A stretch of DNA of 64,000 bases. Source: Pseudovibrio sp. M1P-2-3 (lineage in GTDB: Bacteria > Pseudomonadota > Alphaproteobacteria > Rhizobiales > Stappiaceae). Within the stretch, counting starts at the first letter, position 1. Every line of letters begins with the position of its first letter. The position numbers and the translations under genes were made by a program. The stretch is taken from NCBI RefSeq assembly GCF_031501865.1, contig NZ_JARRCW010000001.1, forward strand, positions 1,249,001 to 1,313,000, written 5' to 3'. Under the pieces are notes generated by a model. It was not told the DNA's origin. It did no database searches and saw nothing but the letters and a program-made list of their open reading frames with translations. Below are positions 32,874 through 59,576 of the stretch, in pieces.

Positions 32874-32990
32874 ATCGCCTGAAGAGCCGGTCCTTTCTTC
32901 GCTCTTTTGTTGCAGTTTTATAAAATCTGCTCGCAAACAGGTCTCTGGACTGGTAAATGTAGATCGCTCCCGATATAAGGCGGGAGCGAA

Positions 32991-33142
32991 TTCTCAGGGC
33001 GGGGTGAAAGTCCCCACCGGCGGTAATTGGGCAATAGATTAGGTTGCCCATCAGCCCGCGAGCGCTTTTTCATATTTTGAAAAAGGTCAGCAGATCTGGT
33101 GCAAACCCGGAGCCGACGGTTATAGTCCGGATGAAAGAGAGA
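32991..33142 (+). promoter_or_regulatory. FMN riboswitch (RFN element)
   Basis: The sequence follows the RFN consensus in order: TCTCAGGGCGGGGTGAAAGT, CCCCACCGGCGGTAA, AGCCCGCGAGCG, a variable hairpin, GTCAGCAGATCTGGTG, AGCCGACGGTTATAGTCCGG and ATGAAAGAGA closing P1. It precedes the RibN-like transporter gene, so flavin shortage should raise transporter expression. A hairpin CGTACC-GTAT-GGTACG at 33225-33240 lies between aptamer and gene; without a T-run it may belong to a translational expression platform. Confidence 0.96.
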
Positions 33143-33301
33143 ATGCAGGGGCAATCGGCTGGCAAATCTACTGTATTTGCGCAAGCATATCCGTGTCCTT
33201 GTGCGTCCTGATTCAAATTGGCAACGTACCGTATGGTACGCATTGGATCAGAGAGTCATTATGATTTTATCTGCAATTTTTATCGGGGTAGGGGGGCATG
33301 C

Positions 33302-45142: not shown

Positions 45143-46054
45143 TCAGGCGGGTTCAGGCTCGGCAAAATCTTCCAATTGCTGAGCTTCCCATTGCTTGTAG
45201 GATTTTTTAGTGCCCACAAGTTTCCACTTTTCTAGGCCGTTGACGGAATAACCTAAGGCAACGCTTGCAGCCATGCTTGGGCTATTGAACGTATAGTCTT
45301 CCAGCAATGTGAGGTTTTCACCATTTGCTTGCACAAGATTATTTGCTTCAAGTTCTTGTCGTATGGCAAGTGCGCCCGGCCTGCGGCCTGAAACGCCTTC
45401 CCACACTCGCCTTAGCGTTGATCCTTTTTCAACGATAAACTCTCCATCTACGACTTGGGCAAATGCTTGGACGTTTGCTTTCGTACTAACCAGCTCGAAA
45501 CGTGCATTTCCTGTAGAGCGATCATTTGCCGTCGAAGTTGCTAGGCGACGTTTGCTTTCCACAAACAGGTCAATGCCCAGCGCTGGCAGGATCATGGTGA
45601 GGTTCTCGAGGAAACCTTCCATGTTGGCGCTGGTGGCTTCAGAAATCTGAGGCATTTGGGGAGTGACGGCGTTTTCCAAAGTGATGCGGCCAACTGAGGT
45701 GGCAAGGGCGTAGCAGCGGGCCTCTAAATAACGCACGTGGGCTTTGTTGAGCTTGTTGTCGGCGGTGGTGATGAACACGGCCTTCGTCCACCAGTCGCGC
45801 TGGCTGTCATGGGAGCGGATGCGCTGGCCGATGTCCTCGGTCTCGCCGATATAGGCAAGGGGCTCGCCGTCTTTCTCGCCCAGCAGAATATAAATGCCCG
45901 TGTAGCTGGCCTCGGTGCGCTGCAGCGCCTGTTTCAGCTGGGTGCGGGGGACAAGGAGCACGTGGCCGGTCCAGTTGAACAGCTCTGCCACCAGCAGGCC
46001 GTCGGGGCGGCCATCGACAAAAAACAGCTCCAGTGATCGACCCTTGGACGCCAT
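45143..46054 (-). CDS. GIY-YIG nuclease-family protein with DUF4357-type C-terminus
   Basis: 303 aa. The nuclease-like domain shows GIYILLGE, then AYIGETEDIGQRIRSH with the expected Arg, near residues 52-81. The C-terminal half (residues about 200-290) looks like DUF4357 (RRVWEGVSGRRPGALAIRQEL, then FNSPSMAASVALG), which often mediates protein or DNA contacts in restriction loci. It sits between hsdS and hsdR, 22 bp after hsdS and with a GGGGGAG site. It is probably an accessory or extra nuclease of the system. Confidence 0.85.
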   Translation of the reverse strand: MASKGRSLELFFVDGRPDGLLVAELFNWTGHVLLVPRTQLKQALQRTEASYTGIYILLGEKDGEPLAYIGETEDIGQRIRSHDSQRDWWTKAVFITTADNKLNKAHVRYLEARCYALATSVGRITLENAVTPQMPQISEATSANMEGFLENLTMILPALGIDLFVESKRRLATSTANDRSTGNARFELVSTKANVQAFAQVVDGEFIVEKGSTLRRVWEGVSGRRPGALAIRQELEANNLVQANGENLTLLEDYTFNSPSMAASVALGYSVNGLEKWKLVGTKKSYKQWEAQQLEDFAEPEPA

Positions 46055-46076
46055 GCGTGCTTCTCCCCCGTAAGTT

Positions 46077-47486
46077 TTAGATGGATGCTGCTGTCAAACT
46101 TGCAGATTCTTGCGCAGGTTGAAAGTCGTCTTTTGGCTCTACCCAGTCCCGCACATCAATCTTGCCGGTGACAGCGGCGGAGATCAAAGCAGTACGGCGT
46201 TCTTTGAGGAGGTCGATTGCGGCTTGGGCCTTTATATTGACAACTGCATAGCGCTCAAGCATTGCGTCGAGCATTCGCACAATCGCTTTTTGTTCTTCAA
46301 GCGGCGGAAATGTAGCAGGTACTGCGCCAATCCGGTCAATATTTAGGTTGGCTTGCGTACTTTGAGTTGACGTTTGTTCTAAAGCAGGAAGCGCTGCGAT
46401 AAAGCTATAACGCAAGAATTCAAGATCAATATTTCTTGTAGGTTTGAACCCTACCACACTATCTGGCGCGTAGGCTTCGAAGTCCAGTATTGCAGTGTCT
46501 CCGATGTTGGCAGCAATTGCCATAACAAGCGTACCAGCTGGGAATAGTTGGCTAATTAAACATCCTTTGTCATTGAGGGTTTGCTTAAATTCAGAAATCT
46601 TTCTACTTGCTCTAGCTATATCTCCAGTCTGAATAAAAGGCTTTGTCCCTCCATCATATAATGATGGATCATTTCGTGGGCGATGCCCAAATTTCCCTCT
46701 GTATATCTGCGTGGCGTAACGATAATTCTTAACCTCCCAATGCTCCGGAATATCGCCGAGCCAGTCGATGCCGGAGGGGCGGAGGGGGGCGTTTGGGTTC
46801 AGGCCTTTGGTGACCGCGTGAGAAATCACCGCCTGCCGCTTTTCTTCCAAAAGGACAATGAGCCGCTCCTGCCGCTCGATCAACCGGTCAATCTTTGCGG
46901 TTTCAAAATCGAGAAACTTGGCGATCTGTTGTTGTTCCGGGAGTGGGGGATATGGAAGTTTTAGTTTCTTGAGTTCACTCAAGCTGATCCGTATACGTGT
47001 GGTACCCGTTGATACAAGCTCTGCATTACGACGAACAGGGTCTGAGTTTACCGCCCAAATGAGAAATGCAAGGTCAACCAGCTTTGTGTCTGCTGTCATT
47101 TTAACACAGTCAGCTACGATAACATATTCGCTATAACGCTGATCAACTAGGGCAGCTCTTGCAACCGGGTCGGCCATTTTTGCGAACACTATATCTTCAG
47201 GCGTCGCAACATGCCTTGCAAGTTGTTCTTTTTTGTTATTCGAAATGAATTTCATGTTTCTAAGAACATGTTTTCCGTCTCGAATATTATTGAGCTGGAC
47301 TAGAGGAACTCCTTCATCTTGGTACTCATTGCTTTTTAAATCGGAACCAAAAGGGCCATCAACAAAAGCGTTAAGTTCTCGACTTGCTAAGAGATTAAGG
47401 CTCTTAGCTTCCCAATGTGATGGTAGTTCTAGATCAAAATAATTTGAGTAAGAGTATTCGCTATATACCTTTGAAAGCCCAGCCAT
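46077..47486 (-). CDS. hsdS: Type I restriction-modification specificity subunit S
   Basis: Determines the bipartite DNA target for both methylation and restriction, 469 aa. It has two target-recognition domains (about residues 20-180 and 245-405), each followed by a conserved helical spacer: PLPEQQQIAKFLDFETAKID and PPLEEQKAIVRMLDAM. The start overlaps the hsdM stop by one base. Base composition is mosaic: the recognition domains are AT-rich while the central spacer is GC-rich. Confidence 0.95.
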   Translation of the reverse strand: MAGLSKVYSEYSYSNYFDLELPSHWEAKSLNLLASRELNAFVDGPFGSDLKSNEYQDEGVPLVQLNNIRDGKHVLRNMKFISNNKKEQLARHVATPEDIVFAKMADPVARAALVDQRYSEYVIVADCVKMTADTKLVDLAFLIWAVNSDPVRRNAELVSTGTTRIRISLSELKKLKLPYPPLPEQQQIAKFLDFETAKIDRLIERQERLIVLLEEKRQAVISHAVTKGLNPNAPLRPSGIDWLGDIPEHWEVKNYRYATQIYRGKFGHRPRNDPSLYDGGTKPFIQTGDIARASRKISEFKQTLNDKGCLISQLFPAGTLVMAIAANIGDTAILDFEAYAPDSVVGFKPTRNIDLEFLRYSFIAALPALEQTSTQSTQANLNIDRIGAVPATFPPLEEQKAIVRMLDAMLERYAVVNIKAQAAIDLLKERRTALISAAVTGKIDVRDWVEPKDDFQPAQESASLTAASI

Positions 47487-49807
47487 CAGGAGTGGACCTC
47501 CTGCAGCAGCTGCATAATCTCTGCGCTCACGGCGTCCAGCTCGGCGTCGATTTCTGCCAAGTCCCGTGGGGGCTGGTAGACATAAAAATGGCGGTTAAAG
47601 GGGATTTCATAGCCGACGATGCCGATCTCTTCGTCGCGCTCATCTTTCTTGCTGGCATCAATCCACGCCTCGGGCACATGGGGCGCGACTTCGCGGGCAA
47701 AGTAGACCTCATTGGCCTCATTGACGGTGCGGGTTGGGTCCAGCGGCACGTTTTCATTGTCGCGCAGGTCCCCATCCGGTTTGTATTCCAACGTTTGCCC
47801 GTGGACTGAAAACAGGCCGTAGGTGGGGTTCGCCTCCACGCCCTTGTGCACCTTCTTGACCACCGGCGCGGCTTGCGGGTTCTTCCAGCTCACGGCAGCG
47901 GTGATCTGCTTCTTTGCGCCTGTCTCCAGCTTGAGGCCGGTTTGCTTTTGCGCTGTTTTCAGCAGGCCGTCAAAGGTGTTCATGTCGTCAAACTGGTCTG
48001 TCCCGATGACCTTTTGCAAGGCCTTGGCGGCAAGCAGAATGGCCTTTTGATTTGCCCATGTCTCAAGCTTCAGAACATCCTTAATGTGCTTTTCCTTCAG
48101 CTCCGCAAAACTCGCTTTGATGTGGGCGCGGATTTCCGCAGTCAACTGGGACAGCTCGCCATAGTGCGGGCAATCCGGCGCGTCGGACCAGTTCTCGCCA
48201 TAGGTCTCATAGATCCACTGCATAACAGCGCCCAGCGGCTTGGGGGCAAAGCGCAGGGCGGCAATTCGTTCATCAGAAAACTGGAAACTTTCGCGCAACG
48301 GACGCTCGATGGTGAGGCGGCGATAGCCGAACTCATGGGTCTGGAAGATTTTCGCAGCAAAGGTTTTGGGCGTGTCCTTCTTGCCGTTTGCCGATTTGCG
48401 CCCACGGGTGCTGGCAGGCTCCTCCGGCTTGTCCAGCGTGCGGGCGTCCACCACCTCGAACGCGCCAAAACAGCGGGTGATGGTGGCAATGTCCCCCTCA
48501 TTCATCTGGTTGCGCTTGGAGCCGAGGGATTTGCGCATTTTGGAAGAAAGGTTCGCCCCGTTGATGAGCTGCACCTTGCCTCGCCGCTCCGCGCTTTTCT
48601 TATTGGAAAGCACCCAAACATAAGTGGCAATGCCGGTGTTGTAGAACATATCCGTTGGCAGAGCGATGATGGCTTCCAGCAGGTCGGCCTCCAGAATATA
48701 GCGGCGGATTTCACTCTCGCCCGAGCCTGCGCCGCCGGTAAACAGCGGCGAGCCGTTCAAAATAATGCCAATGCGCCCGCCGCCCTCATCCGCGCCGCGC
48801 ATTTTGGAAATGAGATGCATAAGGAACAACAGGGAGCCGTCTGAAACACGCGGCAGGCCGGGGCCAAAGCGCCCGTCATGACCCTTGCCGGAGTGCTCCT
48901 TCTTGATGTCACCTTCAATCTTCTTCCAGTCCACACCAAAGGGCGGGTTGGAGAGCATATAGTCAAACTTGTCGGCATAAAGCTGGTCTTGGGAGAGGGT
49001 GTTGCCCAGCTTGATATTCTTGACCTCCTGCCCCTTGATCATCATATCCGCTTTACAGATGGCATAGCTTTCCGGATTCAGCTCCTGCCCAAAGGCGCGC
49101 ATGGTTGTTTGAGGGTTCAGCTCGTGCACATACTCCATGCCGGAAGAGAGAAAGCCGCCGGTTCCTGCGGTGGGGTCGTAAATGGTGCGGATGATGCCGG
49201 GCTTGGTCAGGGCGTCGTCATCTTCCATAAACACCAGCGAGGTGGTGAGGCGCACAATATCGCGCGGGGTGAAGTGCTCCCCCGCCGTCTCGTTGGAGCC
49301 TTCCGCAAAACGGCGGATCAGCTCTTCAAACACCAGACCCATTTCATGGTTGGAAACTTTGGCGGGGCTGAGGTCCGCTTCGCGCACTCTCTTCACCACT
49401 TTGAAAAGCAGGTTGGCTTCACTCAGCTGGGCGATGAACTCGGCAAACTTGAAGTGCTCGAAAATCTCCCGTGCATCCTTGGAAAAGCCCAGAATGTAGC
49501 TCTCCAGATTATCCTTAATGCCAGCTTCCCCCAGCTTGGAAAGGTCCATTCTGGACGTATTAAAAAAGCTCAGGCCAGCGGCGCGGGTAAGCAGCGTTTC
49601 CTTTGCCGTCTCGGCCATGCCAAGCGCCTCGATTTCCTTCGCTTTTTTCAAAACCTCCGCCTTGGTTGGCTCCAGCACACATTCCAGACGGCGCAGCAAG
49701 GTGAACGGCAAAATGATGCGGCCATACTGGCTTTGCTTAAAATCCCCCCGCAAAAGGTCGGCCAAAGACCAAATGAACGAGGCAAGATTATCGGAGGTAT
49801 GAGACAT
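47486..49807 (-). CDS. hsdM: Type I DNA methyltransferase subunit M
   Basis: N6-adenine methyltransferase of the type I system, 773 aa. The N-terminal helical domain (residues 1-150) is followed by the SAM-binding motif [11 protein letters not shown] at 211-220 and the catalytic motif IV NPPF at 287-290. It is longer than typical HsdM (about 500 aa) through a C-terminal extension of roughly 250 residues ending in a coiled helix ([19 protein letters not shown]). First gene of the operon. Confidence 0.95.
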
Positions 49808-50036: not shown

Positions 50037-51416
50037 TTAGCTTGAAACATTCGATAATTTATCGAGACAAAAACTAAGGGGAGTGTTCTTTGGTAACGCG
50101 CAGTAGCCTTTTGACCTTAGTGTTTCTTCTGGAACGAGACCACCACCGATTAAAATTAGAAGGTAGTTGTCCAAGGGGGGCAAATGTTCCTCTGAATTTG
50201 CAACTATCTGATTGATAGGCGCAGTCTCCTGCGCATTTAAAAGCGGCAAAGTTATCGCGCCTTCCGCTCCTTTAGGGTATTCATTGAGATAATGCTTTAC
50301 GCCCCAGACAGGGCTATTGAAGAAAAGGTTATAATAATTCGTATTGAATCGATCTTTCTGTATTTTCAACCCTGCCAACTCTACTTTCCCAGTACGTGTA
50401 TCTGCATAAATCTCCTTCATTACACCATAAATCTCAGGCCATCTTTCCGCTTCAACAGTCGCACTTAATGAAAGAATAGACTTGTTTTTGTCCACTACAA
50501 TAAAGTCGGTACGTGGATCGTAAGCTGCTCGCAATTTCTGTCGAATTATGCGGAACATCTCGGAACCAGAGTTGCCTCCGATATAGTCCAGTAACAGATT
50601 TGCGCCGATCTGATCGTCCGCATCCTCAAACTCTTCGGCTTTAATAAACAGGATCAACATCTCGGAAGTTTCGGGATCTGCGAAATGTATTGTTCCAGTT
50701 GGTAAAGCAAAGGGTCGCTCGGCAGAGCCAGTCAGCGCAGCGGCCCATTCAGTGAAACTAAACTGACGGCGTGTTTGGGGAAGCTTCATGAGCAGTTGTT
50801 CGACATGGTGCTCTACGTCTTTATTTCCAGACCTCAAAATAACCTGATATGGCTGGCCGAAACGGATGTCACTATCACTCTCATCGACAACCACATTATC
50901 GGGTTCGAAATTAAGGTAATGAAAGACTTCGTCTATAACATCAGAGGATCTTCCGGTCTTACTAGAATTTATAAGACGGATTTTTTGAAGCTCCCTCTCA
51001 TACCAGCTTTGTGAGTAGTTCGCTTCAATTAAGAGGCTCTCAAGATAGTCAAGTGTTTCTGGAAAAACTTCGTCTGGCGCAGACACCGTAAGCAACAGAT
51101 TTTGACCATTTGTACTGATGTTGTACTCGATCCCCTTTGTGCGACGGTAAGTGGACCCTTCAGAGGAGGAGTGGGACATTGTCCCGCCTGACATTACACT
51201 TGAGAGGCCGGCCATTAAAACCTTTGCGCGATTTTGCGTCGGAGGATTTACCTGCCAAACAAGGGTTATTGCCGAAAGTCCGTTGTGAAGTGGAGAAAGA
51301 TAAGAGAACTTTGCTATATCGTTTGCTGCAATGAGTTCGGCCCGCACCTGATGTGCGGATATTAAATACAAAAGCGCCAACAAGGAGGAGGTCAATGTGT
51401 GTTTGAATACGTGCAT
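50037..51416 (-). CDS. M16-family peptidase homologue lacking the zinc motif
   Basis: 459 aa with an N-terminal signal peptide ending near residue 26 (SAHQVRA), so periplasmic. The M16 fold is suggested by GLSSVMSGGT and the C-terminal-domain segment RIIRQKLRAAYDPR (Arg/Tyr pair). The HxxEH zinc motif is absent. In M16B proteases an inactive subunit pairs with an active one and supplies the substrate-binding Arg/Tyr; the neighbour at 51418-52707 has the zinc motif, and only 1 bp separates the genes. Last gene of the operon. Confidence 0.82.
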   Translation of the reverse strand: MHVFKHTLTSSLLALLYLISAHQVRAELIAANDIAKFSYLSPLHNGLSAITLVWQVNPPTQNRAKVLMAGLSSVMSGGTMSHSSSEGSTYRRTKGIEYNISTNGQNLLLTVSAPDEVFPETLDYLESLLIEANYSQSWYERELQKIRLINSSKTGRSSDVIDEVFHYLNFEPDNVVVDESDSDIRFGQPYQVILRSGNKDVEHHVEQLLMKLPQTRRQFSFTEWAAALTGSAERPFALPTGTIHFADPETSEMLILFIKAEEFEDADDQIGANLLLDYIGGNSGSEMFRIIRQKLRAAYDPRTDFIVVDKNKSILSLSATVEAERWPEIYGVMKEIYADTRTGKVELAGLKIQKDRFNTNYYNLFFNSPVWGVKHYLNEYPKGAEGAITLPLLNAQETAPINQIVANSEEHLPPLDNYLLILIGGGLVPEETLRSKGYCALPKNTPLSFCLDKLSNVSS

Positions 51417-51417
51417 T

Positions 51418-52707
51418 TTAATCTACTCTTTTGGCTAAAATGACTGACGTTGCAGAAGGTTTCATGACTGTTTCGATGAAATCAATAACTTCCTGATCTG
51501 TTGTACGGGTTAACAAGTTAGCGAAAACTGAGGGGCTAACAGGAGGAAAGCCATCCGCAGCTACATTTTTCAGGAAGGCAAGAAAATCCGTAGGTCGCCG
51601 TTTGGCGTGCAAGGCAGATGTCACTTCCTTCTGGCGGGCCTGATCAATCTCATGACTGCTGATTGGCTCATTCAACAAATTGGAGACGGTGTTAATTAGG
51701 GTGTTATGCGCTGCGTCTAAGCTGAAATCGGGCATTAGCTGTACATCTATGCTGAGTTCAAGATCAGCGTTCTTTACGAAGTGCAAGCCTATTTCATCGA
51801 TGAGAAACCTCTGGTCTTCAAAGTGGAAAGCATTTTCCAATCTACTCATCAAAATATTGGTCGCGATAAAAAATGCACCCTGCATGTCGATGCTAGATGA
51901 TCGATCTGCAAAATCCACGAATTTTATATATTGTACCGTATCCCGTGTTAACCTGTCCGTTTCTATGTATTCGACAGATCTAAGCTCAGGGTCAGGTTTC
52001 TGATCCAGCCAGTTTTTTTCAGGAACGGCTGAAGGTTCTGTGTCTCCAAATACACGCGCAACCAATTCGGCGGCGTTATCCGGCTGAATTTTTCCAGATA
52101 CAATCAATGTAACATTTGAAGGAGCATAGTGCTTTTTGTGAAACTGATAGGCCTTTTCAACACTGAGTTTTGAAAGGTCTTCAACTGCATTATTTGCACG
52201 GCCACGTAAAGTTCCATACAGGTTTTGAAGAGCCATTCTCTTCAGCCAACGCCCTGAAAACTGTCTTTCACGAAGCAATGTTTCGCGCCGAATAATGTCG
52301 ATTTCACTCTCCGCAAAATCTTTTGGCACATTTGGCGTGTCAAGAACAGCTCGTGATAGCCGTAGCAACAATTCAGCATCAGAGGGCGCACCAGAATTTG
52401 TATAAACCGTGGATACAGAGTCGGTTGTCGCATTGATATCGCGTTCTCTTGGATTGCTAAGTACTGTGGCATCTGAGGAGAAAGCGGTTAGGTGCTCTGT
52501 AAGATGGGCTGTGCCAGATGGTTCCGGATCGTCAAACATTCCAGAAAGTACGATCAATTGCACGTCGACGCGATTGAAGTCATCTGTTGGAACAACATAG
52601 GCAGCGTGTAACCCACCTCTATCTGTAAGCTCAATGACGCTTTGAGCCTGAACTGCCACCGCAAAGATTAAGAAGTAAAATGATAGAAACAAACGGACAA
52701 GGTGCAT
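51418..52707 (-). CDS. M16-family zinc metallopeptidase, secreted
   Basis: 429 aa with a signal peptide (FLIFAVAVQAQ). The inverted zinc motif HLTEH is present in GTAHLTEHL, with a third ligand Glu likely in ESEIDIIRRE about 70-80 residues later. It probably forms a periplasmic heterodimer with the next gene and degrades or processes a peptide. Several starts are in frame (52749, 52713, 52707); AAAGG spacing favours 52707. It follows the nitroreductase-like gene after 161 bp. Confidence 0.88.
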   Translation of the reverse strand: MHLVRLFLSFYFLIFAVAVQAQSVIELTDRGGLHAAYVVPTDDFNRVDVQLIVLSGMFDDPEPSGTAHLTEHLTAFSSDATVLSNPRERDINATTDSVSTVYTNSGAPSDAELLLRLSRAVLDTPNVPKDFAESEIDIIRRETLLRERQFSGRWLKRMALQNLYGTLRGRANNAVEDLSKLSVEKAYQFHKKHYAPSNVTLIVSGKIQPDNAAELVARVFGDTEPSAVPEKNWLDQKPDPELRSVEYIETDRLTRDTVQYIKFVDFADRSSSIDMQGAFFIATNILMSRLENAFHFEDQRFLIDEIGLHFVKNADLELSIDVQLMPDFSLDAAHNTLINTVSNLLNEPISSHEIDQARQKEVTSALHAKRRPTDFLAFLKNVAADGFPPVSPSVFANLLTRTTDQEVIDFIETVMKPSATSVILAKRVD

Positions 52708-52868
52708 TATCATGAGCCTTTGAAAAGGTAATTTGATCAAAACTAACATCGTGATTTTTGAGGGTGCTTTGTTTTGCTAAACACCTGAATGATTGCAGCT
52801 GCTTCGAAAGTAGTCCTTCGTGAATATTTCAAAACGTGTTCTGCTGGAGAATAAGCCACCCTTCTATG

Positions 52869-53885
52869 TTACTCTTCACAGATGAGTTCAGTAACTGGAA
52901 CTCGAGCACGCGCTGATGGCTGATCTGGTGCTTTGCCTAATCTTAGTGCGTTAATGAAACGGTGATCATCAGGGACACCATATGATTTGCAGCACACCGC
53001 GTTGGTACTCTTATTGTCTGCCAGTGCAGCCATGGGCCAACAGATGAAGCCAAATTTTGTAAGTAGTAACCAAAAACGATAAAAAGCACGGCCCGAGGCT
53101 ACGCAACTTTCGTCTGCAGGTCTATGAAAGAGCGCTATCGCACTGGCGCTGGTTGTCTGTTTTTTCTCACTAAGAAGAATTTTGGTTAGCCCGAGAAAAT
53201 GCAACAGCGGAAACACAGTTGCTCCCAAAACAATGCTTGCGCCAAAGCCCTCAAATCGGGTCATGTTCATGGCTTCAAGGTTCATCCCATCTAGGCTGTA
53301 GCGAGAGTGCTTACGGCATAACCGCATCCAGCTTACCAGTTCTGCTCGATAAGCTACCTCACTCATAAACCGAAGGCTGGATTCATCATTCAGCGCTGAT
53401 AACTGAGCTATATCATTAGCATCGCTTACAATGATTGTATCTAACGTAGTTGCAGCCCATGTGTGCAGCTCCTCAAGCTTTTCCTTTTGGCAAGGAAGGA
53501 ATTTGCTGCGCCATGTATAACGTTTAGCAGTATAGGGATACAATGGGTCTTGTCCTCTCCCCTTTTCGGAGATTTTGATGACTGCAACCAACTGGTTTTT
53601 GTCCTGTTCCCAAGACGAAGGATCAACCATCTGTTCCACGTCCGCCATATAACCCATCCCGGACAGTGCGATGAGCATTCCTTCGATAGTACACCCACAA
53701 GATAGTGCAATATCCATGAAGTGAGGATCGGCAGCAGGTAATGTGCGAGATAAGTCAACTAGCACCTCGATGCTTTTCGTTGAAAAGCGTCTCCACCGTG
53801 CCGGTTGAACATTATGGACAGTAGGAGCCAAGTTTGCTTGAGTAACCAGTTCTTTGAATTGACTGTCGGAAAGCACATGAACCAT
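52869..53885 (-). CDS. Nitroreductase-fold protein (Acg-like)
   Basis: 338 aa. The N-terminus LVTQANLAPTVHNVQPARWRR matches the FMN-phosphate-binding start of nitroreductases (AP-x-x-HN-x-QPW). The C-terminal part with ASAIALFHRPADES and SGRAFYRFWLLLTKFGF fits the second half of the fold. Overall it resembles the divergent Acg/Rv3131 type more than NfsB. It starts at the base next to the stop of the GNAT gene. FMN use is likely; the substrate is unknown. Confidence 0.72.
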   Translation of the reverse strand: MVHVLSDSQFKELVTQANLAPTVHNVQPARWRRFSTKSIEVLVDLSRTLPAADPHFMDIALSCGCTIEGMLIALSGMGYMADVEQMVDPSSWEQDKNQLVAVIKISEKGRGQDPLYPYTAKRYTWRSKFLPCQKEKLEELHTWAATTLDTIIVSDANDIAQLSALNDESSLRFMSEVAYRAELVSWMRLCRKHSRYSLDGMNLEAMNMTRFEGFGASIVLGATVFPLLHFLGLTKILLSEKKQTTSASAIALFHRPADESCVASGRAFYRFWLLLTKFGFICWPMAALADNKSTNAVCCKSYGVPDDHRFINALRLGKAPDQPSARARVPVTELICEE

Positions 53886-54995
53886 TTATGCGAGTGCTTT
53901 GCAAAAAAGATGGAGCTGATGTAGTGGTTGACCACCTGCCTTTTTAACCTGTTTCATGCTGGCATGGTTGCTATCAGAAATCCAAGTACCTCCGGTACTC
54001 TTATATCCTGCTTGTTTCATCTGTCTCATGACGTGTGCCAGCATCGTTGGGTTTACTCCCATATTTTGAAAACGAGGTAGCACTCCTTGCAAGATGATAA
54101 TTGCCCGTTTTCGATTCATATGATGTTTTAAAAAATACCAAGGTGTCGACCAACGTAAACGTGATTTTGTTGCTTTAAGGAACGGATTCAAATCCGGTAT
54201 TGCAATCACAACGCCAGCAGGTTCGCCCTTATAGTGCATAAGACATGATATTCTCGGATCTATAATCCATTTCATCTCTTTAGCTTGAAACTGAAATTCT
54301 TCTGAGGTTACAGGTACGAACATCGGATTATCGGCAAAGCTTGCATTCAGTATTTGACGTGCTTCCTCCAGCCTTTGGTGAAGGTTGTTTCGGGAAATTG
54401 GAGCGAAGCTAAATCCTTGCTTTAATAATGTTTGCTGCTTCTGTGTACTCGACATTCTGGAAGTATCTAGTGCAGTTAGGTCAATCTCGATTGTCTGCAT
54501 TGGAAAGAAGCGTTCATATCCGTTTTGCTCAAGTATCGCTGGCAGGTAATCAGGACCATAGACCATGTCCGTGTAAGGCTGATGATTGAAACCTCCTGTT
54601 TGTATGCCAATCTGTTGCATTGCCGTCAGATTGAAATTTCCTGAAATGCGCCGCATACCTTTCTGTCGCGCGAAGTCTTCGGCTTTTGAGAGTAAAAGGC
54701 GTGCAACGTCCTTATCATTTACACAATCAAAAAAGCCAAAATATGCTAGGTCCGGATCGTGCAGAATCTGCGAGGCTCGGTGAATATGTGCTGTTATCCT
54801 TCCTACCGGAAACCCGTTCTTGATAGCTGTGAAAAAAGTAAAGTCACCGTCATTTTCAAACAGCGGATTCGTCTTAGCAGACAGAAAGCGACTGATATCG
54901 CTTTTCATTGGTGAAACATAGAGAGACTGGGCAGGGTAAGCGTGAAAAGGAACTTTAAAAAATGAGTGTATGTCTCTTTCAACTATTGTAATCAT
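53886..54995 (-). CDS. GNAT-superfamily acyltransferase-like protein (YghO-like)
   Basis: 369 aa. The N-terminal half (FFKVPFHAYPAQSLYVSPM, NPLFENDGDFTFFTAIKNG) and the second half with GVLPRFQNMGVNPTMLAHVM resemble the large GNAT proteins of the YghO type; the last stretch is the expected acyl-CoA binding region. The ATG at 54995 overlaps the upstream stop (TGATG). The acyl donor and acceptor are unknown. Confidence 0.7.
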   Translation of the reverse strand: MITIVERDIHSFFKVPFHAYPAQSLYVSPMKSDISRFLSAKTNPLFENDGDFTFFTAIKNGFPVGRITAHIHRASQILHDPDLAYFGFFDCVNDKDVARLLLSKAEDFARQKGMRRISGNFNLTAMQQIGIQTGGFNHQPYTDMVYGPDYLPAILEQNGYERFFPMQTIEIDLTALDTSRMSSTQKQQTLLKQGFSFAPISRNNLHQRLEEARQILNASFADNPMFVPVTSEEFQFQAKEMKWIIDPRISCLMHYKGEPAGVVIAIPDLNPFLKATKSRLRWSTPWYFLKHHMNRKRAIIILQGVLPRFQNMGVNPTMLAHVMRQMKQAGYKSTGGTWISDSNHASMKQVKKAGGQPLHQLHLFCKALA

Positions 54996-56200
54996 CAAAC
55001 GAATTCACTTTTAGCAATTAGATAGGCGATACGCTGAAATACTACAAATTCCAAATCTCCAGTCGGAGAACTGGAGATATCTGGTAAATTAACTGCAAGG
55101 ATCCGAAGGGGAGCCTGTCCAATCAACAGAATATGAGTTGCATCATACTTGGTAAATAGCCAGTCTATCTGGTCTTTATCTGGGTCCGACACTTCTCCCT
55201 TTGTCAACGCTTGTGGTTTGCGCAGGACGACCTTATCGGAAAAGACTTTTTGCAATATTCCAAGATTAAATTCTTCAAGGTCCTTCTGATCAAGAATAAC
55301 TGAGGCGCTAAAGGGAGAACCGGGCTGCTCAAATCGAAGGAAGCATTCTAAACTGTCCATTGACCCGCCAACAGCATGGCGCAGTAAACCCAAATTGCGT
55401 TTGCTAGTCCAGTTCCAATGAGCTTCAAGCAACAATGAGAAAACCATCAGCAATGCAAGTATCATACTTGCGATTTGTAATTGACTTTCTGTTGCGAGCG
55501 GCACGAACACGTTGAGGCTCCAGGTCGCTATGACCGTAATCACGGCCATAAAACTCAAGGAAATAAATGCATCCTTATGGCTTAAGTGCGCTCGACTTAA
55601 CGTAACGGTCAACCAACATGTGAACAGCACCGCAATACCTGAGAGGCGAGCGGGAAAGAGGGTGTTTAATTTGGCAAAGTCGGAAATGAGAAGTGGCAGT
55701 ATAAAAATAAGCGCTAAGGCGAGGCGTGAAATTGCTTGATTTTCCTCTGCCCTTAACGAGTTTTTGTCACGCATGACAACCCAATATGCCGCGAATACAA
55801 AGGAAAACGCTTGGAGTAAAAAAAGGAAATGAGTTCTAATAGAAGCGGTAAACGTGCCTGGTATTAGGGCGAAAAAAAGCAATATCACTGTGCCCACTGA
55901 CATAAACCATTTACTCCATAAAGGAGCATGTCGGCGCAATAATGCCTCGGTGAGTAACAAGACGCTTAAGGGAATGAGGCTCGCAATTACCACCGTGACA
56001 ACTGCAAAACTTGCAACCCCTGTGTGCCATTCAATCGTTCGGGTAAGCATAACCCCTGAAATCAAATAGAGCACCCATAAGAAACGCCTGATGAGATAGT
56101 CATTGTGGCTACGCTGTTTTAGTGTCGAGATCAACACAAGTGCACCAGTAAACGCGGAAAGCGAAATTACGCTATCTACTAAAAGATTAGTGCCGTCCAT
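54995..56200 (-). CDS. Polytopic membrane protein with soluble C-terminal domain, unknown function
   Basis: 401 aa with eight or nine hydrophobic segments in residues 1-270, then a soluble part of about 130 residues beginning near LLRHAVGGSMDSLE. No HAMP, kinase, GGDEF or transporter motif is visible. The layout suggests a membrane sensor or scaffold for the cytoplasmic enzymes of the operon. It lies 1 bp after the ThiF-like gene and overlaps the GNAT gene by one base. Confidence 0.65.
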   Translation of the reverse strand: MDGTNLLVDSVISLSAFTGALVLISTLKQRSHNDYLIRRFLWVLYLISGVMLTRTIEWHTGVASFAVVTVVIASLIPLSVLLLTEALLRRHAPLWSKWFMSVGTVILLFFALIPGTFTASIRTHFLFLLQAFSFVFAAYWVVMRDKNSLRAEENQAISRLALALIFILPLLISDFAKLNTLFPARLSGIAVLFTCWLTVTLSRAHLSHKDAFISLSFMAVITVIATWSLNVFVPLATESQLQIASMILALLMVFSLLLEAHWNWTSKRNLGLLRHAVGGSMDSLECFLRFEQPGSPFSASVILDQKDLEEFNLGILQKVFSDKVVLRKPQALTKGEVSDPDKDQIDWLFTKYDATHILLIGQAPLRILAVNLPDISSSPTGDLEFVVFQRIAYLIAKSEFV

Positions 56201-56201
56201 C

Positions 56202-57086
56202 TCACGCTCCCAGCACTTTATTCAAAAAACGCCTCACCAGTGGGCGCAATAGAATTGCAAGCCAATCAGGTTTAGGACGTTCTATGCATGCCTTATAGGG
56301 GTTGAAGAAATAACCTTTGCAGTCCACTGCGCTGGGTTGAGCTAAAATAACTGCGAAGGCTTCATAGCTCATCAACATGCCTGTGGTGATCACCATTGGG
56401 GCGAATGACATGCGACTTCGCGTCCCTGTAGCAACTTCTCCAGCCATCTGAAGATCAACATAATGCCGTGAGGAGGAATGTAGGACAATATGCTCTGCTT
56501 CCCGCAAGAATGACTGCGTACGCTGTTCTTCACTTAAGGCATTCCATTCCGTCGTAAGTGTCGGGTAACCCAACCGTTCTTCGGGTGTCTGATCACCGGG
56601 GGCTGTGACATAAACGGATGGCAACGGCGAGGCATAAGCATCAATAATCGTTTTGCCGTGTATCCTTGCTTTCCGGTAAAGCAACAGCGAACCGCTCAAG
56701 TCATCACAACCATTGATAATCACATCACTTTTTTGCAAGATTAGATCAATGTGCTCAGGCCAATCTCTATGATAAACTTCCACGTTAATACGCGGATTGA
56801 TTTTCAAGCATGCTTCTTTGGTCGCCTCAGCCTTATGCTGATCAATGGTTTCGAGCGTGGCAAACAGCTGCCTGTTCAAATTGGAAACTTCAAAGCCATC
56901 TAGATCCGCAATAATCAGGTTTCCCACACCAGCACGCGCTAACGACATGATACAGGCCCCCCCCATGCCGCCAGCCCCACAGATAAATACAGTTGCGCCT
57001 GCCAGCTTTTTTTGCTGATCAGCCGTAAGAAATCCAAGATTACGTTTCGTAAACTCATCATATTCAAAGGGGGGGGGCATTTTCAT
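56202..57086 (-). CDS. E1-like (ThiF/MoeB superfamily) adenylyltransferase
   Basis: 294 aa from ATG 57086. The Rossmann ATP-binding motif GAGGMGG lies at residues 37-43, followed by DLDGFEVSNLNRQ (61-73, with the ATP-contacting Arg) and the conserved Lys in HKAEATKE. CDD lies near 127. The CxxC zinc pairs of ThiF/MoeB are missing. Such enzymes adenylate a carboxyl end or a small acid. The start overlaps the upstream stop as ATGA. Nine consecutive C occur in codons 3-6. Confidence 0.85.
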   Translation of the reverse strand: MKMPPPFEYDEFTKRNLGFLTADQQKKLAGATVFICGAGGMGGACIMSLARAGVGNLIIADLDGFEVSNLNRQLFATLETIDQHKAEATKEACLKINPRINVEVYHRDWPEHIDLILQKSDVIINGCDDLSGSLLLYRKARIHGKTIIDAYASPLPSVYVTAPGDQTPEERLGYPTLTTEWNALSEEQRTQSFLREAEHIVLHSSSRHYVDLQMAGEVATGTRSRMSFAPMVITTGMLMSYEAFAVILAQPSAVDCKGYFFNPYKACIERPKPDWLAILLRPLVRRFLNKVLGA

Positions 57087-58027
57087 TGCGGCCTTAGTGT
57101 TTTCCAATTGCGAGAACTGTCAAACCAGTGGAGCACTGGCAGTAATAGGCGCTGTAAAAGCACAAAACAGGCCGCTGTCAACAATGAACGTAGAGATTTA
57201 CGTGGGACTTGGTCACGTATATACCGTTGGGCTGCAGCGAGGTCGATCTTGCCTATCTGCAAAACATCGTCACCGCGCTCATAGTCCAATACTTCTTTGC
57301 AATAGGCATTGAACACCGGATCCCGATGGGACGTAGCGTCTACAAATCTTTTTTTAAGGCTGTCAGATCCCCCTGTGTATGCATCCGTTATGACAGATTC
57401 GTGCTCCTTGAAGCCCGCTGTTTCATCAACACCAAATGCAGAGCGGTGATTCATCATAATAGATCGACTGAGTAGAAGGTGCATCAAGCTTTGCCGGGTG
57501 CCTTCCCCAGGATTGGGATAGACCTGAGAAAACGTGTTGGAGACCATGCCAACAACGGCAGGCACTTGCGTTACATTGGAAACCCAAAGCGGGCGGAACT
57601 GGTTTCGCAGGAATAATAGGAAACATGTTAACCCGTAGAGCACCCAAGAAAGGCCATGACGCTGCTCCTCGGGGTCTACCATCACTAATCCAAGGTGTAA
57701 AACTTCATGCTTTACCCCACCCAAGTCACAAGGCATAAACCTCAGGGCATTAAAGGCGATAGGGTGATTATCTGCCCTTCTGTAAATCACTGTTATGACT
57801 ACGTGTTCTAAGATCTCGATGTCTTTTGAAAACACACCATACTCAAGATCTTTTGCATCAAGCGTTTTACCCGCGATTAAATGCAAATCTTCACGCAAAC
57901 GATCTAACTCGGTCGAAGTCATCCAAAGGCCGGGGCGCTCAACAATACGTGTCTTCAGGTGAGGTGAATTGTTTATCTTAATATCAATGTGCTTTTGTGC
58001 AAGCAATCGAAGCCACTTTAGACGCAA
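57083..58027 (-). CDS. GNAT-like protein, first gene of the operon
   Basis: 314 aa. The segment HLGLVMVDPEEQRHGLSWVLYG resembles the GNAT acyl-CoA-binding strand and loop (Q/R-x-x-G). The following VSNVTQVPAVVGMVSNTFSQVYP is distinctive but I do not recognise its family. A hydrophobic, basic C-terminus (LLTAACFVLLQRLLLPVLHWF) could touch the membrane. Translation probably starts at TTG 58027, preceded by GGAGAG. The operon promoter should lie in 58028-58115. Confidence 0.6.
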   Translation of the reverse strand: MRLKWLRLLAQKHIDIKINNSPHLKTRIVERPGLWMTSTELDRLREDLHLIAGKTLDAKDLEYGVFSKDIEILEHVVITVIYRRADNHPIAFNALRFMPCDLGGVKHEVLHLGLVMVDPEEQRHGLSWVLYGLTCFLLFLRNQFRPLWVSNVTQVPAVVGMVSNTFSQVYPNPGEGTRQSLMHLLLSRSIMMNHRSAFGVDETAGFKEHESVITDAYTGGSDSLKKRFVDATSHRDPVFNAYCKEVLDYERGDDVLQIGKIDLAAAQRYIRDQVPRKSLRSLLTAACFVLLQRLLLPVLHWFDSSRNWKTLRPQ

Positions 58028-58199
58028 TCTACTCTCCGGAAATGAAACATAAAATTGAATTCTTAACGCAAGATAGGTTCTATTGTGAAGTGCTAACTTG
58101 GGTTTTATGCAAAGTTCAACCTAATGTCTTTACCACTTTCTTTAAAGCGGCCTTGAAAGGGCGTAAGCCACCCCAGTCACTTTCCGATGTTAGATTATA

Positions 58200-58392
58200 G
58201 CTCATGTCGATTTCCAAAAATCCATTATCCAGATAGGGCCGAACTTTCGGTAGACGGGTCAAGGCATACCGGATCGCTTTAGCAAGTGGAAACTTGTTGG
58301 AGATCTTTGGGAGTTGTGTTTGCAGCCAGACTTCCAGTTCATCTAGAACCGGTTTTGCATCTTGTTGGCGAACGACTTGCCGTTCCTCGGTA
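58200..58392 (-). pseudogene. IS66-family transposase (TnpC) fragment
   Basis: A stretch VLDELEVWLQTQLPKIS, then PLAKAIRYALTRLP and YLDNGFLEID matches the C-terminal region of IS66 TnpC. Both ends are missing: upstream it stops at the IS3 element, and downstream similarity ends near 58200. Confidence 0.8.
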
Positions 58393-58449
58393 TGAGCCTC
58401 CCCCAAAGAAGTGGTCCACGTTTATGATTAGGAAAACGGAGGACTCGAT

Positions 58450-58728
58450 ATGGGAATCAAGAGACCCAAACCAGAAGAGATTGTCGTTAAACTGCGGCAA
58501 GTTGAAGTCCTGACGGGGCAAGGAATGGCGCGCATGGATGCGATCCGCCAGATCGGCGTTACCGAGCAAACCTATTACCGTTGGAAGAAGCAGTATGGCG
58601 GAATGGGTACGGAGCAACTCAAGGAACTGAAGCGGCTGCAGAAAGAAAATGAACGTTTGCGCCGTGCGGTCTCGGATCTGACACTGGACAAGCTGATCCT
58701 TACGGAGGCTGCAAAGGGAAACTTCTGA
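58450..58728 (+). CDS. IS3-family transposase orfA
   Basis: 92 aa. N-terminal helix-turn-helix ([15 protein letters not shown], then [17 protein letters not shown]) and a leucine-rich coiled segment ([18 protein letters not shown]), typical of the IS407/IS51-like group. It ends KGNF, where AAAGGGAAAC at 58713-58722 looks like a -1 slip site into orfB. Confidence 0.92.
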
Positions 58729-58772
58729 GCCCTGCTCGTCGCAGAGCCTGCATTAACCATATACGCAGTCAG

Positions 58773-59576
58773 GTGAAGGTTTCCGAGCGGCGTGTTTGTC
58801 GTGTTCTTGGTCAGCATCGCTCCACACAGCGTCGCTTCCCCAAAGGGCGAGCGGATGAAGATCAGCTGGTTGCAGATATGATTGAGCTGGCACGCCAATA
58901 TGGCCGTTACGGTTACCGTCGCATTGCCGCTTTGCTCCGAGAGGCTGGATGGCAAGTGAACGATAAACGTGTTGAACGTCTGTGGCGACGAGAGGGGCTG
59001 AAAGTTCCCATGAAGCAACCAAAAAAGGGGCGGCTCTGGCTCAATGATGGGTCTTGCATACGTCTCCGGCCACAGTATCGCAATCACGTGTGGTCCTATG
59101 ACTTTGTCCATCATCGCACTGATGATGGCAGGGCATTCAGAACGTTGAATATTTTGGATGAGTATACGCGTGAATGCCTTGCTATTCGGGTGAAGCGAAA
59201 GCTGAATGCGAGCGAAGTCATCGATGCGCTGACGGACCTGTTTATCCTGCGCGGCATACCTGCCTATATTCGTTCAGATAACGGCCCGGAGTTCGTGGCG
59301 GAGGCGGTTCAAAAGTGGATCAAATCCGTCGGAGCCCAAACAGCCTACATTGAGCCAGGATCGCCTTGGGAAAACGGATATTGCGAAAGTTTCAATGGGC
59401 GAATGCGTGATGAATTATTGAATGGAGAAATCTTCTACTCGCTACATGAAGCTCAAATAATCATAGAACGCTGGAGGAAACACTACAATACCAAACGACC
59501 GCATAGTGCTCTGGGCTACCGCCCTCCAGTTCCGGAAGTCATTATTCCGATAGACCAAAGGCCAACCATGCACTAA
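58773..59576 (+). CDS. IS3-family transposase orfB (integrase core)
   Basis: 267 aa from GTG 58773; the frame is open back to the slip site near 58713, adding [12 protein letters not shown]. The rve catalytic triad is complete: Asp in [13 protein letters not shown], Asp in IRSDNGPEF, Glu in [19 protein letters not shown]_21-like region [17 protein letters not shown] precedes it. Confidence 0.92.

What the first reader, a model, noticed from the sequence alone, without database searches (positions are those of the whole stretch)
50037..58027. Seven-gene operon of E1-like, GNAT, nitroreductase, membrane and M16 protease proteins: candidate undescribed system
Seven genes on one strand are packed with overlaps or gaps of 0-1 bp, except 161 bp before the M16 pair. 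Encoded order: GNAT-like protein, E1-like adenylyltransferase, 8-9 TM protein with a soluble tail, YghO-like GNAT, Acg-like nitroreductase, active M16 peptidase (HLTEH) with signal peptide, inactive M16 partner with signal peptide. Carboxyl activation, acyl transfer, FMN redox and periplasmic peptide cleavage in one transcript suggest synthesis or modification of a peptide or amino-acid-derived compound and its processing across the membrane. I know of no described pathway with this set. No precursor peptide was found in the gaps, so the substrate may be a cellular protein or small molecule.
Basis: partly seen in the sequence, partly recalled or inferred. Interest (0 to 1): 0.8.

Follow-up and report, generated by a model that had tools for sequence, protein, structure and literature searches.

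The report
Five-gene acyl-amino-acid lipid cassette
Five of the seven genes form an uncharacterised cassette, shared in the same order by many alphaproteobacteria, that most likely builds an unusual fatty-acid-plus-amino-acid molecule, whereas the two protease genes beside it look like chance neighbours.

Summary
The seven ORFs are real and correctly placed, but they are probably not one system. Genes 1-5 (GNAT1, E1/ThiF, 7-8-TM protein, GNAT2, Acg-type flavoprotein) form a conserved cassette: 55 of the 80 best loci found with GNAT2 carry 1-2-3-4-5 on one strand, mostly with 4-bp overlaps; 5 have part of it and 20 have GNAT2 alone. The M16 pair is in 0 of 80; its inactive partner was found only in the window's own genome among 199 (order) and 299 (phylum).

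The composition (N-acyltransferase, ThiF, flavin oxidase) is that of the characterised acyl-oxazolone pathways (OxzAB, TyzACB, TrzAS). But GNAT2 is a relative of E. coli YghO, the presumed ceramide N-acyltransferase; the flavoprotein is nearer the Acg (FDO-B) side; and the cassette travels with a RoxA-like di-haem cytochrome (33 of 80) or TetR/PspA genes (19 of 55 full cassettes).

Best reading: GNAT2 N-acylates an amino acid or amine, E1 adenylates and perhaps cyclises it, and the flavoprotein desaturates it, giving a membrane-associated oxazolone or dehydro-amino-acid lipid (confidence 0.45). It is an undescribed variant of a known kind; the M16 peptide-processing role is not supported.

The parts
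57083..58027 (-). GNAT1: GNAT-fold protein with a C-terminal hydrophobic helix (residues ~281-299)
   Evidence: AlphaFold2 pLDDT 87, pTM 0.83; Foldseek finds GNAT folds, best NatD 2.6e-6; first gene in 55 of 80 loci
56202..57107 (-). E1/ThiF-type adenylating enzyme (probable start ATG at 57086)
   Evidence: Pfam ThiF 3.7e-35; GxGGxG, D68, D70, N76, R79, Q80, K92, D128, D135 shared with E. coli MoeB and three oxazolone-type ThiFs
54995..56200 (-). 7-8-TM membrane protein with a small C-terminal alpha/beta domain, no named family
   Evidence: no family for the window protein at E<=0.1 in Pfam or NCBIfam, only scattered weak hits in the other 49 members; no PDB fold match at E<=0.001
53886..54998 (-). 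GNAT2: relative of YghO, the presumed ceramide N-acyltransferase (probable start ATG at 54995)
   Evidence: Match to E. coli BL21 YghO, 24%, 9e-33, residues 4-369; 189 relatives in genome contigs
52869..53885 (-). Acg/FDO-type flavin oxidase of the nitroreductase superfamily
   Evidence: NF047509 3.7e-41, NF005901 (Rv1355c = TrzS family) 4.5e-16; profile matches to an Acg-family protein (99.2%, 1e-19) and to FDOs of three-gene acyltransferase/ThiF/FDO loci (97%, 7e-11)
51418..52749 (-). Active-type M16 peptidase with hydrophobic leader; judged a neighbour, not part of the cassette
   Evidence: M16_C 3.8e-13; HLTEH at 82; 0 of 80 loci
50037..51416 (-). Inactive M16 partner, leader by eye only; judged a neighbour, not part of the cassette
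   Evidence: M16_C 2.3e-6; no HxxEH; found only in the own genome among 199 order and 299 phylum genomes

Best explanation
Genes 1-5 are a horizontally spread biosynthetic cassette for an N-acyl-amino-acid-derived lipid. Proposed order: GNAT2 (YghO/ceramide-synthase-type) transfers a fatty acyl group to the amino group of an amino acid or other amine (inferred); E1 adenylates the carboxylate, which closes to an oxazolone or is otherwise activated (adenylation residues shown, reaction inferred); the Acg/FDO-type flavoprotein oxidises it, with O2, to an unsaturated product (family shown, reaction inferred from TyzC/TrzS). GNAT1, which has a C-terminal hydrophobic helix, and the 7-8-TM protein form a separable accessory module that modifies, holds or senses the product at the membrane (inferred). 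In many relatives a RoxA-like di-haem cytochrome gene abuts the cassette, its product presumably acting outside the cytoplasm; in others a TetR/PspA pair suggests envelope-stress control. The M16 pair is an unrelated two-gene unit next to it.
For: Order 1-2-3-4-5 in 55 of the 80 loci kept (of 189 relatives); gaps <=20 bp, overlaps included, at 55/56, 54/54, 55/56 and 55/56 measured junctions. Acyltransferase + ThiF + FDO adjacency is the signature the oxazolone authors use (PMC12856293 section 4). E1 and the flavoprotein match those of three-gene acyltransferase/ThiF/FDO loci (hhalign 99.7%/1e-25 and 97%/7e-11). In a like-for-like control E1 scores higher against one such ThiF (151.7, 168 columns, sharing an N-terminal FxY...RNxG..T..EQ stretch) than against E. 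coli MoeB (127.0, 127 columns). Adenylation residues intact. GNAT2 is homologous to YghO, which lies beside spt in BL21 and is the presumed dihydroceramide N-acyltransferase (PMC9386255 passages). Locus L085 keeps only E1-GNAT2-flavoprotein plus RoxA-like, an acyltransferase-ThiF-FDO triad. Three loci keep only GNAT1+TM with TetR+PspA, so that pair is separable.
Against: No acyltransferase of the FeeM/LuxI/exosortase type used by the known pathways: GNAT1 gives no profile match to it (hhalign 0.2%; the comparison alignment had only 2 sequences) and no FeeM or LuxI is in the 50 Foldseek rows shown. E1's best model PRK08223 (107 bits) is far below its cut-off of 266 and hardly ahead of ThiF (97.8 bits); the tree does not resolve it. 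The flavoprotein is clearly nearer an Acg-family protein (hhalign score 136.8) than the FDO of a three-gene locus (55.0), and matches NF047509 (141.7 bits) better than NF005901 (58.3); FDO-B enzymes are not known to make oxazolones (PMC10404671). No product, substrate or activity is known.
Confidence: 0.45

Rival explanations
1. The cassette makes a ceramide-like or other aminolipid in which E1 activates a carboxylate for coupling to a second amine or alcohol (amide or ester), not for ring closure, and the flavoprotein desaturates the lipid.
For: GNAT2 is YghO/ceramide-synthase-like; the flavoprotein is nearer the Acg/FDO-B side, whose members are proposed to desaturate other lipids (PMC10404671 discussion); two acyltransferases, a membrane protein and, in 13 of 55 full cassettes, a nearby Aas-type gene (in the Ensifer plasmid a fusion of MFS + acyltransferase + AMP-binding) suggest membrane lipids.
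Against: No sphingolipid genes beside the cassettes: an E. coli Spt homologue in 1 of 80 loci. ThiF-type enzymes beside FDOs are described so far, in the papers seen, as oxazolone cyclases or in dehydro-amino-acid lipid clusters.
Confidence: 0.3
2. Signal-receptor pair: the cassette makes a diffusible N-acyl signal and the 7-8-TM protein is its sensor.
For: Helix bundle with a small soluble tail; GPCR rows among weak, non-significant Foldseek hits (best receptor row E 0.066; the top row, E 0.023, is a designed helical barrel); 1 of 50 members matches 7TMR-DISM_7TM at 0.0012; oxazolones resemble acyl homoserine lactones (PMC12856293).
Against: No output domain recognised; no fold match at E<=0.001; 49 of 50 members do not match 7TMR-DISM at 0.1.
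Confidence: 0.1
3. One reading: all seven genes make or process a peptide, with the M16 pair cleaving it outside the cytoplasm.
For: Same strand, 119-161 bp gap only; GC of the M16 pair (0.44-0.45) is like that of the cassette (0.43-0.48); no terminator-like site listed in the gap on the - strand (such scans run near shuffle level).
Against: 0 of 80 loci (tblastn E<=0.01); M16b only in the own genome among 199 and 299; the best other M16a hit (L143) has a weakly matching partner (21% over 104 residues, E 0.002) and no cassette gene in the 3.9 kb held.
Confidence: 0.06
4. Anti-phage or ubiquitin-like conjugation system on a mobile island (E1 next to a type I restriction locus and insertion sequences).
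For: E1 matches PADLOC E1-E2 models (best 2.2e-15); IS and type I RM neighbours (named by eye).
Against: The match covers only the shared adenylation domain; no E2, JAB or Ubl partner among the seven proteins; the others match no PADLOC model at E<=1 except a 0.0016 Cas12c hit of the flavoprotein that looks spurious.
Confidence: 0.04

Closest known systems
TyzA-TyzC-TyzB and TrzA-TrzS acyl-oxazolone pathways (Mycobacteriales); OxzAB of Pseudoalteromonas rubra
   Same: Adjacent N-acyltransferase, ThiF-type ATP-dependent enzyme and nitroreductase-superfamily flavin oxidase; adenylation residues kept.
   Different: Acyltransferase is YghO-like plus a second unrelated GNAT, not FeeM/LuxI-like; flavoprotein nearer Acg/FDO-B; extra TM protein; RoxA-like or TetR/PspA companions; E1 not shown to lie in the oxazolone ThiF clade.
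Stieleriacine / thalassotalic acid / kyonggic acid clusters (NasY + ThiF + nitroreductase; PMC12479983, passages seen)
   Same: Same three-function composition in operon-like clusters in Pseudomonadota and Planctomycetota.
   Different: NasY-type synthase there; here YghO-like GNAT2, GNAT1, a TM protein and other companion genes.
E. coli BL21 YghO / Caulobacter CC_1154 (Aca, presumed ceramide N-acyltransferase)
   Same: GNAT2 aligns over nearly its full length with YghO (24%, 9e-33).
   Different: No spt and epimerase genes beside it as a rule (1 of 80 each); sits with E1 and flavin oxidase. CC_1154 itself was not compared.
RoxA rubber oxygenase (PDB 4b2n; the name is recalled, the PDB calls it '70 kDa protein')
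   Same: Companion protein in 33 of 80 loci has two CxxCH motifs; Pfam RoxA-like_Cyt-c 3.9e-17 and 1.6e-17 in the two scanned.
   Different: PDB match covers only 35 residues; no such gene found in the window's genome.

Membership tests
Acyl-oxazolone pathway (Tyz/Trz/Oxz) | ThiF-type enzyme with intact adenylation site | tested here: met
   GxGGxG, D68, D70, N76, R79, Q80, K92, D128, D135 identical in E1, E. coli MoeB and three oxazolone-type ThiFs; which of D128/D135 matches TrzS Asp217 was not determined
Acyl-oxazolone pathway (Tyz/Trz/Oxz) | Nitroreductase-superfamily flavin oxidase encoded next to it | tested here: met
   Acg family 3.7e-41; same operon in 55 of 80 loci
Acyl-oxazolone pathway (Tyz/Trz/Oxz) | That oxidase belongs to subgroup FDO-A | tested here: inconclusive
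   Leans against: nearer an Acg-family protein than an FDO of a three-gene locus (136.8 against 55.0); NF047509 141.7 against NF005901 58.3 bits. But two of the three FDOs of those loci also score best with NF047509
Acyl-oxazolone pathway (Tyz/Trz/Oxz) | FeeM/LuxI-like N-acyl amino acid synthase | tested here: not met
   GNAT1 against exosort_acyl: hhalign 0.2%; no FeeM or LuxI in the 50 Foldseek rows shown; a different, YghO-like acyltransferase is present
Acyl-oxazolone pathway (Tyz/Trz/Oxz) | ThiF in the oxazolone subclusters | tested here: inconclusive
   Leans for: 151.7 against L114 ThiF, 127.0 against MoeB. But PRK08223 107 bits against cut-off 266, ThiF 97.8 bits; tree unresolved
Acyl-oxazolone pathway (Tyz/Trz/Oxz) | Oxazolone product | not testable with these tools
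   Needs mass spectrometry
YghO / bacterial ceramide synthase | Full-length sequence homology | tested here: met
   24% identity, 9e-33, residues 4-369
YghO / bacterial ceramide synthase | Sphingolipid gene context (spt, epimerase) | tested here: not met
   Spt homologue in 1 of 80 loci, epimerase in 1 of 80 (ORFs of 100 aa or more, so the ACP was not looked for); own genome has 34%, 35% and 28% Spt matches, not resolved from other oxoamine synthases
YghO / bacterial ceramide synthase | Ceramide synthase activity | not testable with these tools
   Needs assay
Heterodimeric exported M16 pair | Active HxxEH subunit beside an inactive one, both exported | tested here: inconclusive
   HLTEH at 82 and E156/E161 in M16a, none in M16b; leader in M16a by hydropathy, in M16b by eye only
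E1-based conjugation / anti-phage systems | E2, JAB or Ubl partner | tested here: not met
   No such domain among the seven proteins
ThiF-type RiPP pathway | Precursor peptide gene | tested here: inconclusive
   Genes 1-5 leave 0-1 bp or overlap, so none lies between them; flanks were not searched for ORFs under 60 aa

The most novel reading that the evidence does not exclude
A new class of reactive bacterial lipid: a ceramide-synthase-like enzyme makes an N-acyl amino compound that E1 and the flavin oxidase turn into an unsaturated azlactone-type headgroup in the membrane. GNAT1 and the 7-8-TM protein handle or sense it; in many lineages a RoxA-like di-haem enzyme cleaves or oxidises it outside the cytoplasm, while in others the PspA/TetR pair answers to it: an envelope signalling or defence lipid.
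Probability: 0.15. Interest if true: 0.85.

Novelty: new variant of a known kind. Interest (0 to 1): 0.55.

Why it matters
The physiological role of oxazolones is called a major unresolved question by the authors of PMC12856293 (discussion). A cassette of related logic, conserved in culturable marine and soil alphaproteobacteria and in Bdellovibrionota, with a different acyltransferase, a membrane protein, and stress-regulator or extracytoplasmic oxidase companions, gives a genetically tractable place to ask what such molecules do. It also gives an unexpected second setting for the YghO/ceramide-synthase family.

Tried and rejected
Seven-gene system: rejected after 0 of 80 loci held an M16 gene and two genome searches found the inactive partner only in the window's own genome. 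Limits: only the best 80 of 189 relatives were kept; of the 55 full cassettes 53, 50 and 47 hold at least 2, 3 and 5 kb past gene 5; the genome tool uses a loose first look that could miss diverged partners.

GNAT1 as a TyzA/FeeM homologue: not supported, with only two sequences in the comparison alignment. GNAT1 and GNAT2 show no relation to each other by profile. E1 inside the oxazolone ThiF clade: tree inconclusive, with very long branches and a misplaced JAB-E1 row of the own genome; pairwise controls lean towards it. Flavoprotein as FDO-A: controls lean away from it.

TM protein as PrsK/7TMR sensor: no named family, no significant fold.

RoxA-like and TetR/PspA excluding each other: striking in counts (24 and 19 of 55, overlap 0; hypergeometric 5e-7) but not independent of ancestry, since only 2 of 6 independent pairs were informative.

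A Rv1355c-family (TrzS) protein above its cut-off was found in none of 398 phylum genomes, so TrzS, TyzB and OxzB themselves were compared only through NCBIfam models and the three-gene loci L113-L115, whose own product is unknown. A RoxA-like homologue was not found in the own genome (one query, no positive control in that search). Promoter-like and terminator-like counts were close to shuffles. Plasmid searches placed E1 and GNAT1 relatives on Ensifer, Rhizobium and Shinella plasmids; in the one such region opened, an Ensifer plasmid, the five genes are named 'hypothetical protein', 'ThiF family adenylyltransferase', 'hypothetical protein', 'GNAT family N-acetyltransferase', 'hypothetical protein'.

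Two of the eight wide loci appear again among the 80: L013 with L048 and L020 with L094, judged by equal contig lengths; they were not added to the 80.
Full report
WHAT IS THERE. The seven ORFs lie on the - strand at 50037-58027 as stated. Read from the DNA, genes 1-5 are translationally tight: GNAT1/E1 overlap by ATGA (E1 ATG at 57086), E1/TM 1 bp, TM/GNAT2 TGATG, GNAT2/flavoprotein 0 bp. The M16 pair follows after 119 bp (first ATG, 52749) or 161 bp (ATG at 52707), with 1 bp between its two genes. Family searches give ThiF (3.7e-35), GNAT, Acg-type nitroreductase (NF047509 3.7e-41) and two M16 proteins; GNAT1 has only a sub-threshold GNAT hit and the membrane protein no credible one. M16a carries HLTEH at residue 82; M16b has no HxxEH.

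HOW MUCH OF IT IS A UNIT. A profile of GNAT2 found 189 relatives in the genome collection, of which the best 80 were kept. In these 80 loci the pattern, judged by blastp to the window proteins at 1e-5, is 1-2-3-4-5 in 55; GNAT2 alone in 20; 2-3-4-5 in 2 (L024, L065, where gene 2 starts at the edge of the stretch held); 1-2-4-5 in 2 and 2-4-5 in 1. All matched genes are on one strand. In four full loci (L023, L025, L077, L088) a gene is split into two or three ORFs and was counted once. Gaps of at most 20 bp, overlaps included, were seen at 55 of 56, 54 of 54, 55 of 56 and 55 of 56 measured junctions, median -4 bp; starts were set at the Met nearest to the aligned start. M16 genes were found in 0 of 80 loci, also with tblastn at E<=0.01, including the nearest relative, L021 (Pseudovibrio sp. 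Alg231-02; 77% identity in GNAT1 and E1, 57% in the TM protein). M16b was found only in the window's own genome among 199 of the order and 299 of the phylum. M16a matches 146 of 199 order genomes (own included) at E<=0.001 as an ordinary M16 relative, the best other hit at 28% and 4e-19; that hit (L143) is followed by a second gene with a weak match to M16b and has no cassette gene in the 3.9 kb held. The M16 pair is therefore best taken as a neighbour. Base composition does not set it apart (GC 0.44-0.45 against 0.43-0.48).

SPREAD. With the TM protein as query, 9 of 297 order genomes matched, the own included; the eleven other same-family genomes listed did not. With GNAT1, 8 of 398 phylum genomes matched, the own included. 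Among the 80 loci the full cassette occurs in Hyphomicrobiales, Rhodobacterales, Sphingomonadales, Rhodospirillales, Caulobacterales, Hyphomonadales, one Lysobacter and a few unplaced metagenome bins, and the variant with the TM gene moved occurs in two Bdellovibrionota. E1 and GNAT1 relatives also lie on Ensifer, Rhizobium and Shinella plasmids. The Lysobacter E1 falls among alphaproteobacterial ones, on unstarred branches. In L021 an ORF that reads like a tyrosine integrase lies directly upstream (by eye), and in the window an IS3-type element and an IS66-like fragment lie upstream (by eye). Sporadic, mobile distribution is the simplest reading.

SEPARABLE PARTS. Three order genomes (L014, L018, L019) have only GNAT1 + TM, and all three have a TetR and a PspA gene close by, with no E1, GNAT2, flavoprotein or RoxA-like match in 15.6-19 kb. 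L085 has E1-GNAT2-flavoprotein plus the RoxA-like gene and no GNAT1 or TM match. The two Bdellovibrionota loci first appeared to lack the TM gene, but a related one lies upstream of GNAT1 (hhalign 97.3%, 2e-11); there the RoxA-like gene follows the flavoprotein on the same strand with a 4-bp overlap, giving a six-gene run. The RoxA-like family (two CxxCH motifs in all 33; Pfam RoxA-like_Cyt-c in both members scanned) is present in 33 of 80 loci: 24 of 55 full, 5 of 20 GNAT2-only, 4 of 5 others. Of the 28 that also have gene 5, 27 lie within -14 to +7 bp of its end, 25 of them convergent, and one (L050) 5 kb away. All five full cassettes of the first genome search also have it (two of these five are repeats of loci among the 80). 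TetR/PspA genes are at 19 of 55 full cassettes and an Aas-type gene at 13 of 55. RoxA-like and TetR/PspA never occur together in the 55, but this follows ancestry: only 2 of 6 independent pairs are informative.

WHAT THE ENZYMES ARE. E1: residues shared by ThiF-type adenylation sites, among them two aspartates, are present; the paper on TrzS shows by an Asp-to-Ala variant that one such aspartate is needed for activity, though I did not determine which of the two it is. E1 aligns over most of its length with the ThiF of three loci in non-alphaproteobacterial Pseudomonadota (L113-L115) that hold acyltransferase, PRK08223-type ThiF and FDO side by side. Against single sequences it scores 151.7 with one of these and 127.0 with MoeB. 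It is, however, nearly as close to the ThiF model as to PRK08223, and a tree did not decide. Flavoprotein: a full-length profile match to the FDOs of the same loci, but a stronger one to an Acg-family protein (136.8 against 55.0), so it leans to the FDO-B side. GNAT2: homologue of E. coli YghO (24%, 9e-33); in BL21 yghO lies beside the acyl-AMP ligase, epimerase, acyl carrier protein and spt genes, and PMC9386255 (passages seen) names it as the presumed N-acyltransferase for dihydroceramide. GNAT1: confident model (pLDDT 87, pTM 0.83), GNAT fold with NatD as best Foldseek match (2.6e-6, query TM-score 0.32), and a C-terminal hydrophobic helix; no link found to the FeeM/LuxI/exosortase acyltransferases. 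TM protein: confident model (pLDDT 90), helix bundle plus small C-terminal domain, no significant fold match.

HOW IT MOST LIKELY WORKS. The reduced locus L085 shows the core: an acyltransferase, an adenylating E1 and a flavin oxidase. That is the composition of the characterised acyl-oxazolone pathways, in which an N-acylated amino acid is cyclised with ATP by the ThiF homologue and desaturated with O2 by the FDO (PMC10404671 abstract and sections 4, 5, 11; PMC12856293 abstract and sections 4, 7, 8), and of clusters for N-acyl dehydrotyrosines (PMC12479983, passages). I therefore propose that GNAT2 is the N-acyltransferase, E1 the activating/cyclising enzyme and gene 5 the desaturase, with GNAT1 and the TM protein as a membrane module. 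Shown: gene order, homologies, adenylation residues. Inferred: every reaction, the substrate, the role of GNAT1, the TM protein and the companions. The Acg-side flavoprotein makes a non-oxazolone aminolipid a serious rival (0.3).

KNOWN OR NEW. As a member of the oxazolone pathway family it fails one tested feature (FeeM-like acyltransferase) and leaves two open (ThiF subcluster, FDO subgroup), so I do not file it as a member; it may well work like one. As a YghO-family system it lacks the sphingolipid context. I found no paper describing this gene set in the searches and 122 of the held library, which lacks most subscription papers; the original OxzAB paper was not among the results and is known to me only through the papers cited. 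Hence: new variant of a known kind.

Noticed in passing
window 45143-49807: Type I restriction-modification genes (hsdM-like 773 aa, hsdS-like 469 aa and a 303-aa protein with a GIY-YIG-like look) downstream of the M16 pair on the same strand; the hsdM-like gene has clearly higher GC (0.565). Names judged by eye.
   Followed up: no
window 58116-59576: IS3-type element (two ORFs, + strand) that seems to have inserted into an IS66-type transposase remnant, whose ORF ends 88 bp upstream of the cassette. Names by eye.
   Followed up: no
L095:6905-13712 and L097:2815-9813: In Bdellovibrionota the cassette is a six-gene run TM-GNAT1-E1-GNAT2-flavoprotein-RoxA-like, the last with a lipoprotein-like leader (by eye) and a 4-bp overlap.
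   Followed up: partly
L113, L114, L115: Three-gene acyltransferase/ThiF/FDO loci in unnamed Pseudomonadota genomes; two have PEP-CTERM/exosortase-associated acyltransferases (TIGR03694) and a nearby exported-looking protein of unknown function.
   Followed up: partly
L003 (own genome, contig C2, 250156-250500): A 462-aa ORF that reads as a JAB (HSHPGG) domain fused to an E1 domain, on the second contig of the own genome.
   Followed up: no
L049, L052, L060 and other GNAT2-only loci: GNAT2 alone often sits in a conserved Rhodobacterales neighbourhood beside a trimethylamine-methyltransferase-like and a HAD-like gene (names by eye); 5 of 20 such loci also have the RoxA-like gene.
   Followed up: partly
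window 32986-33146: FMN riboswitch (RF00050, 105 bits) on the + strand.
   Followed up: no
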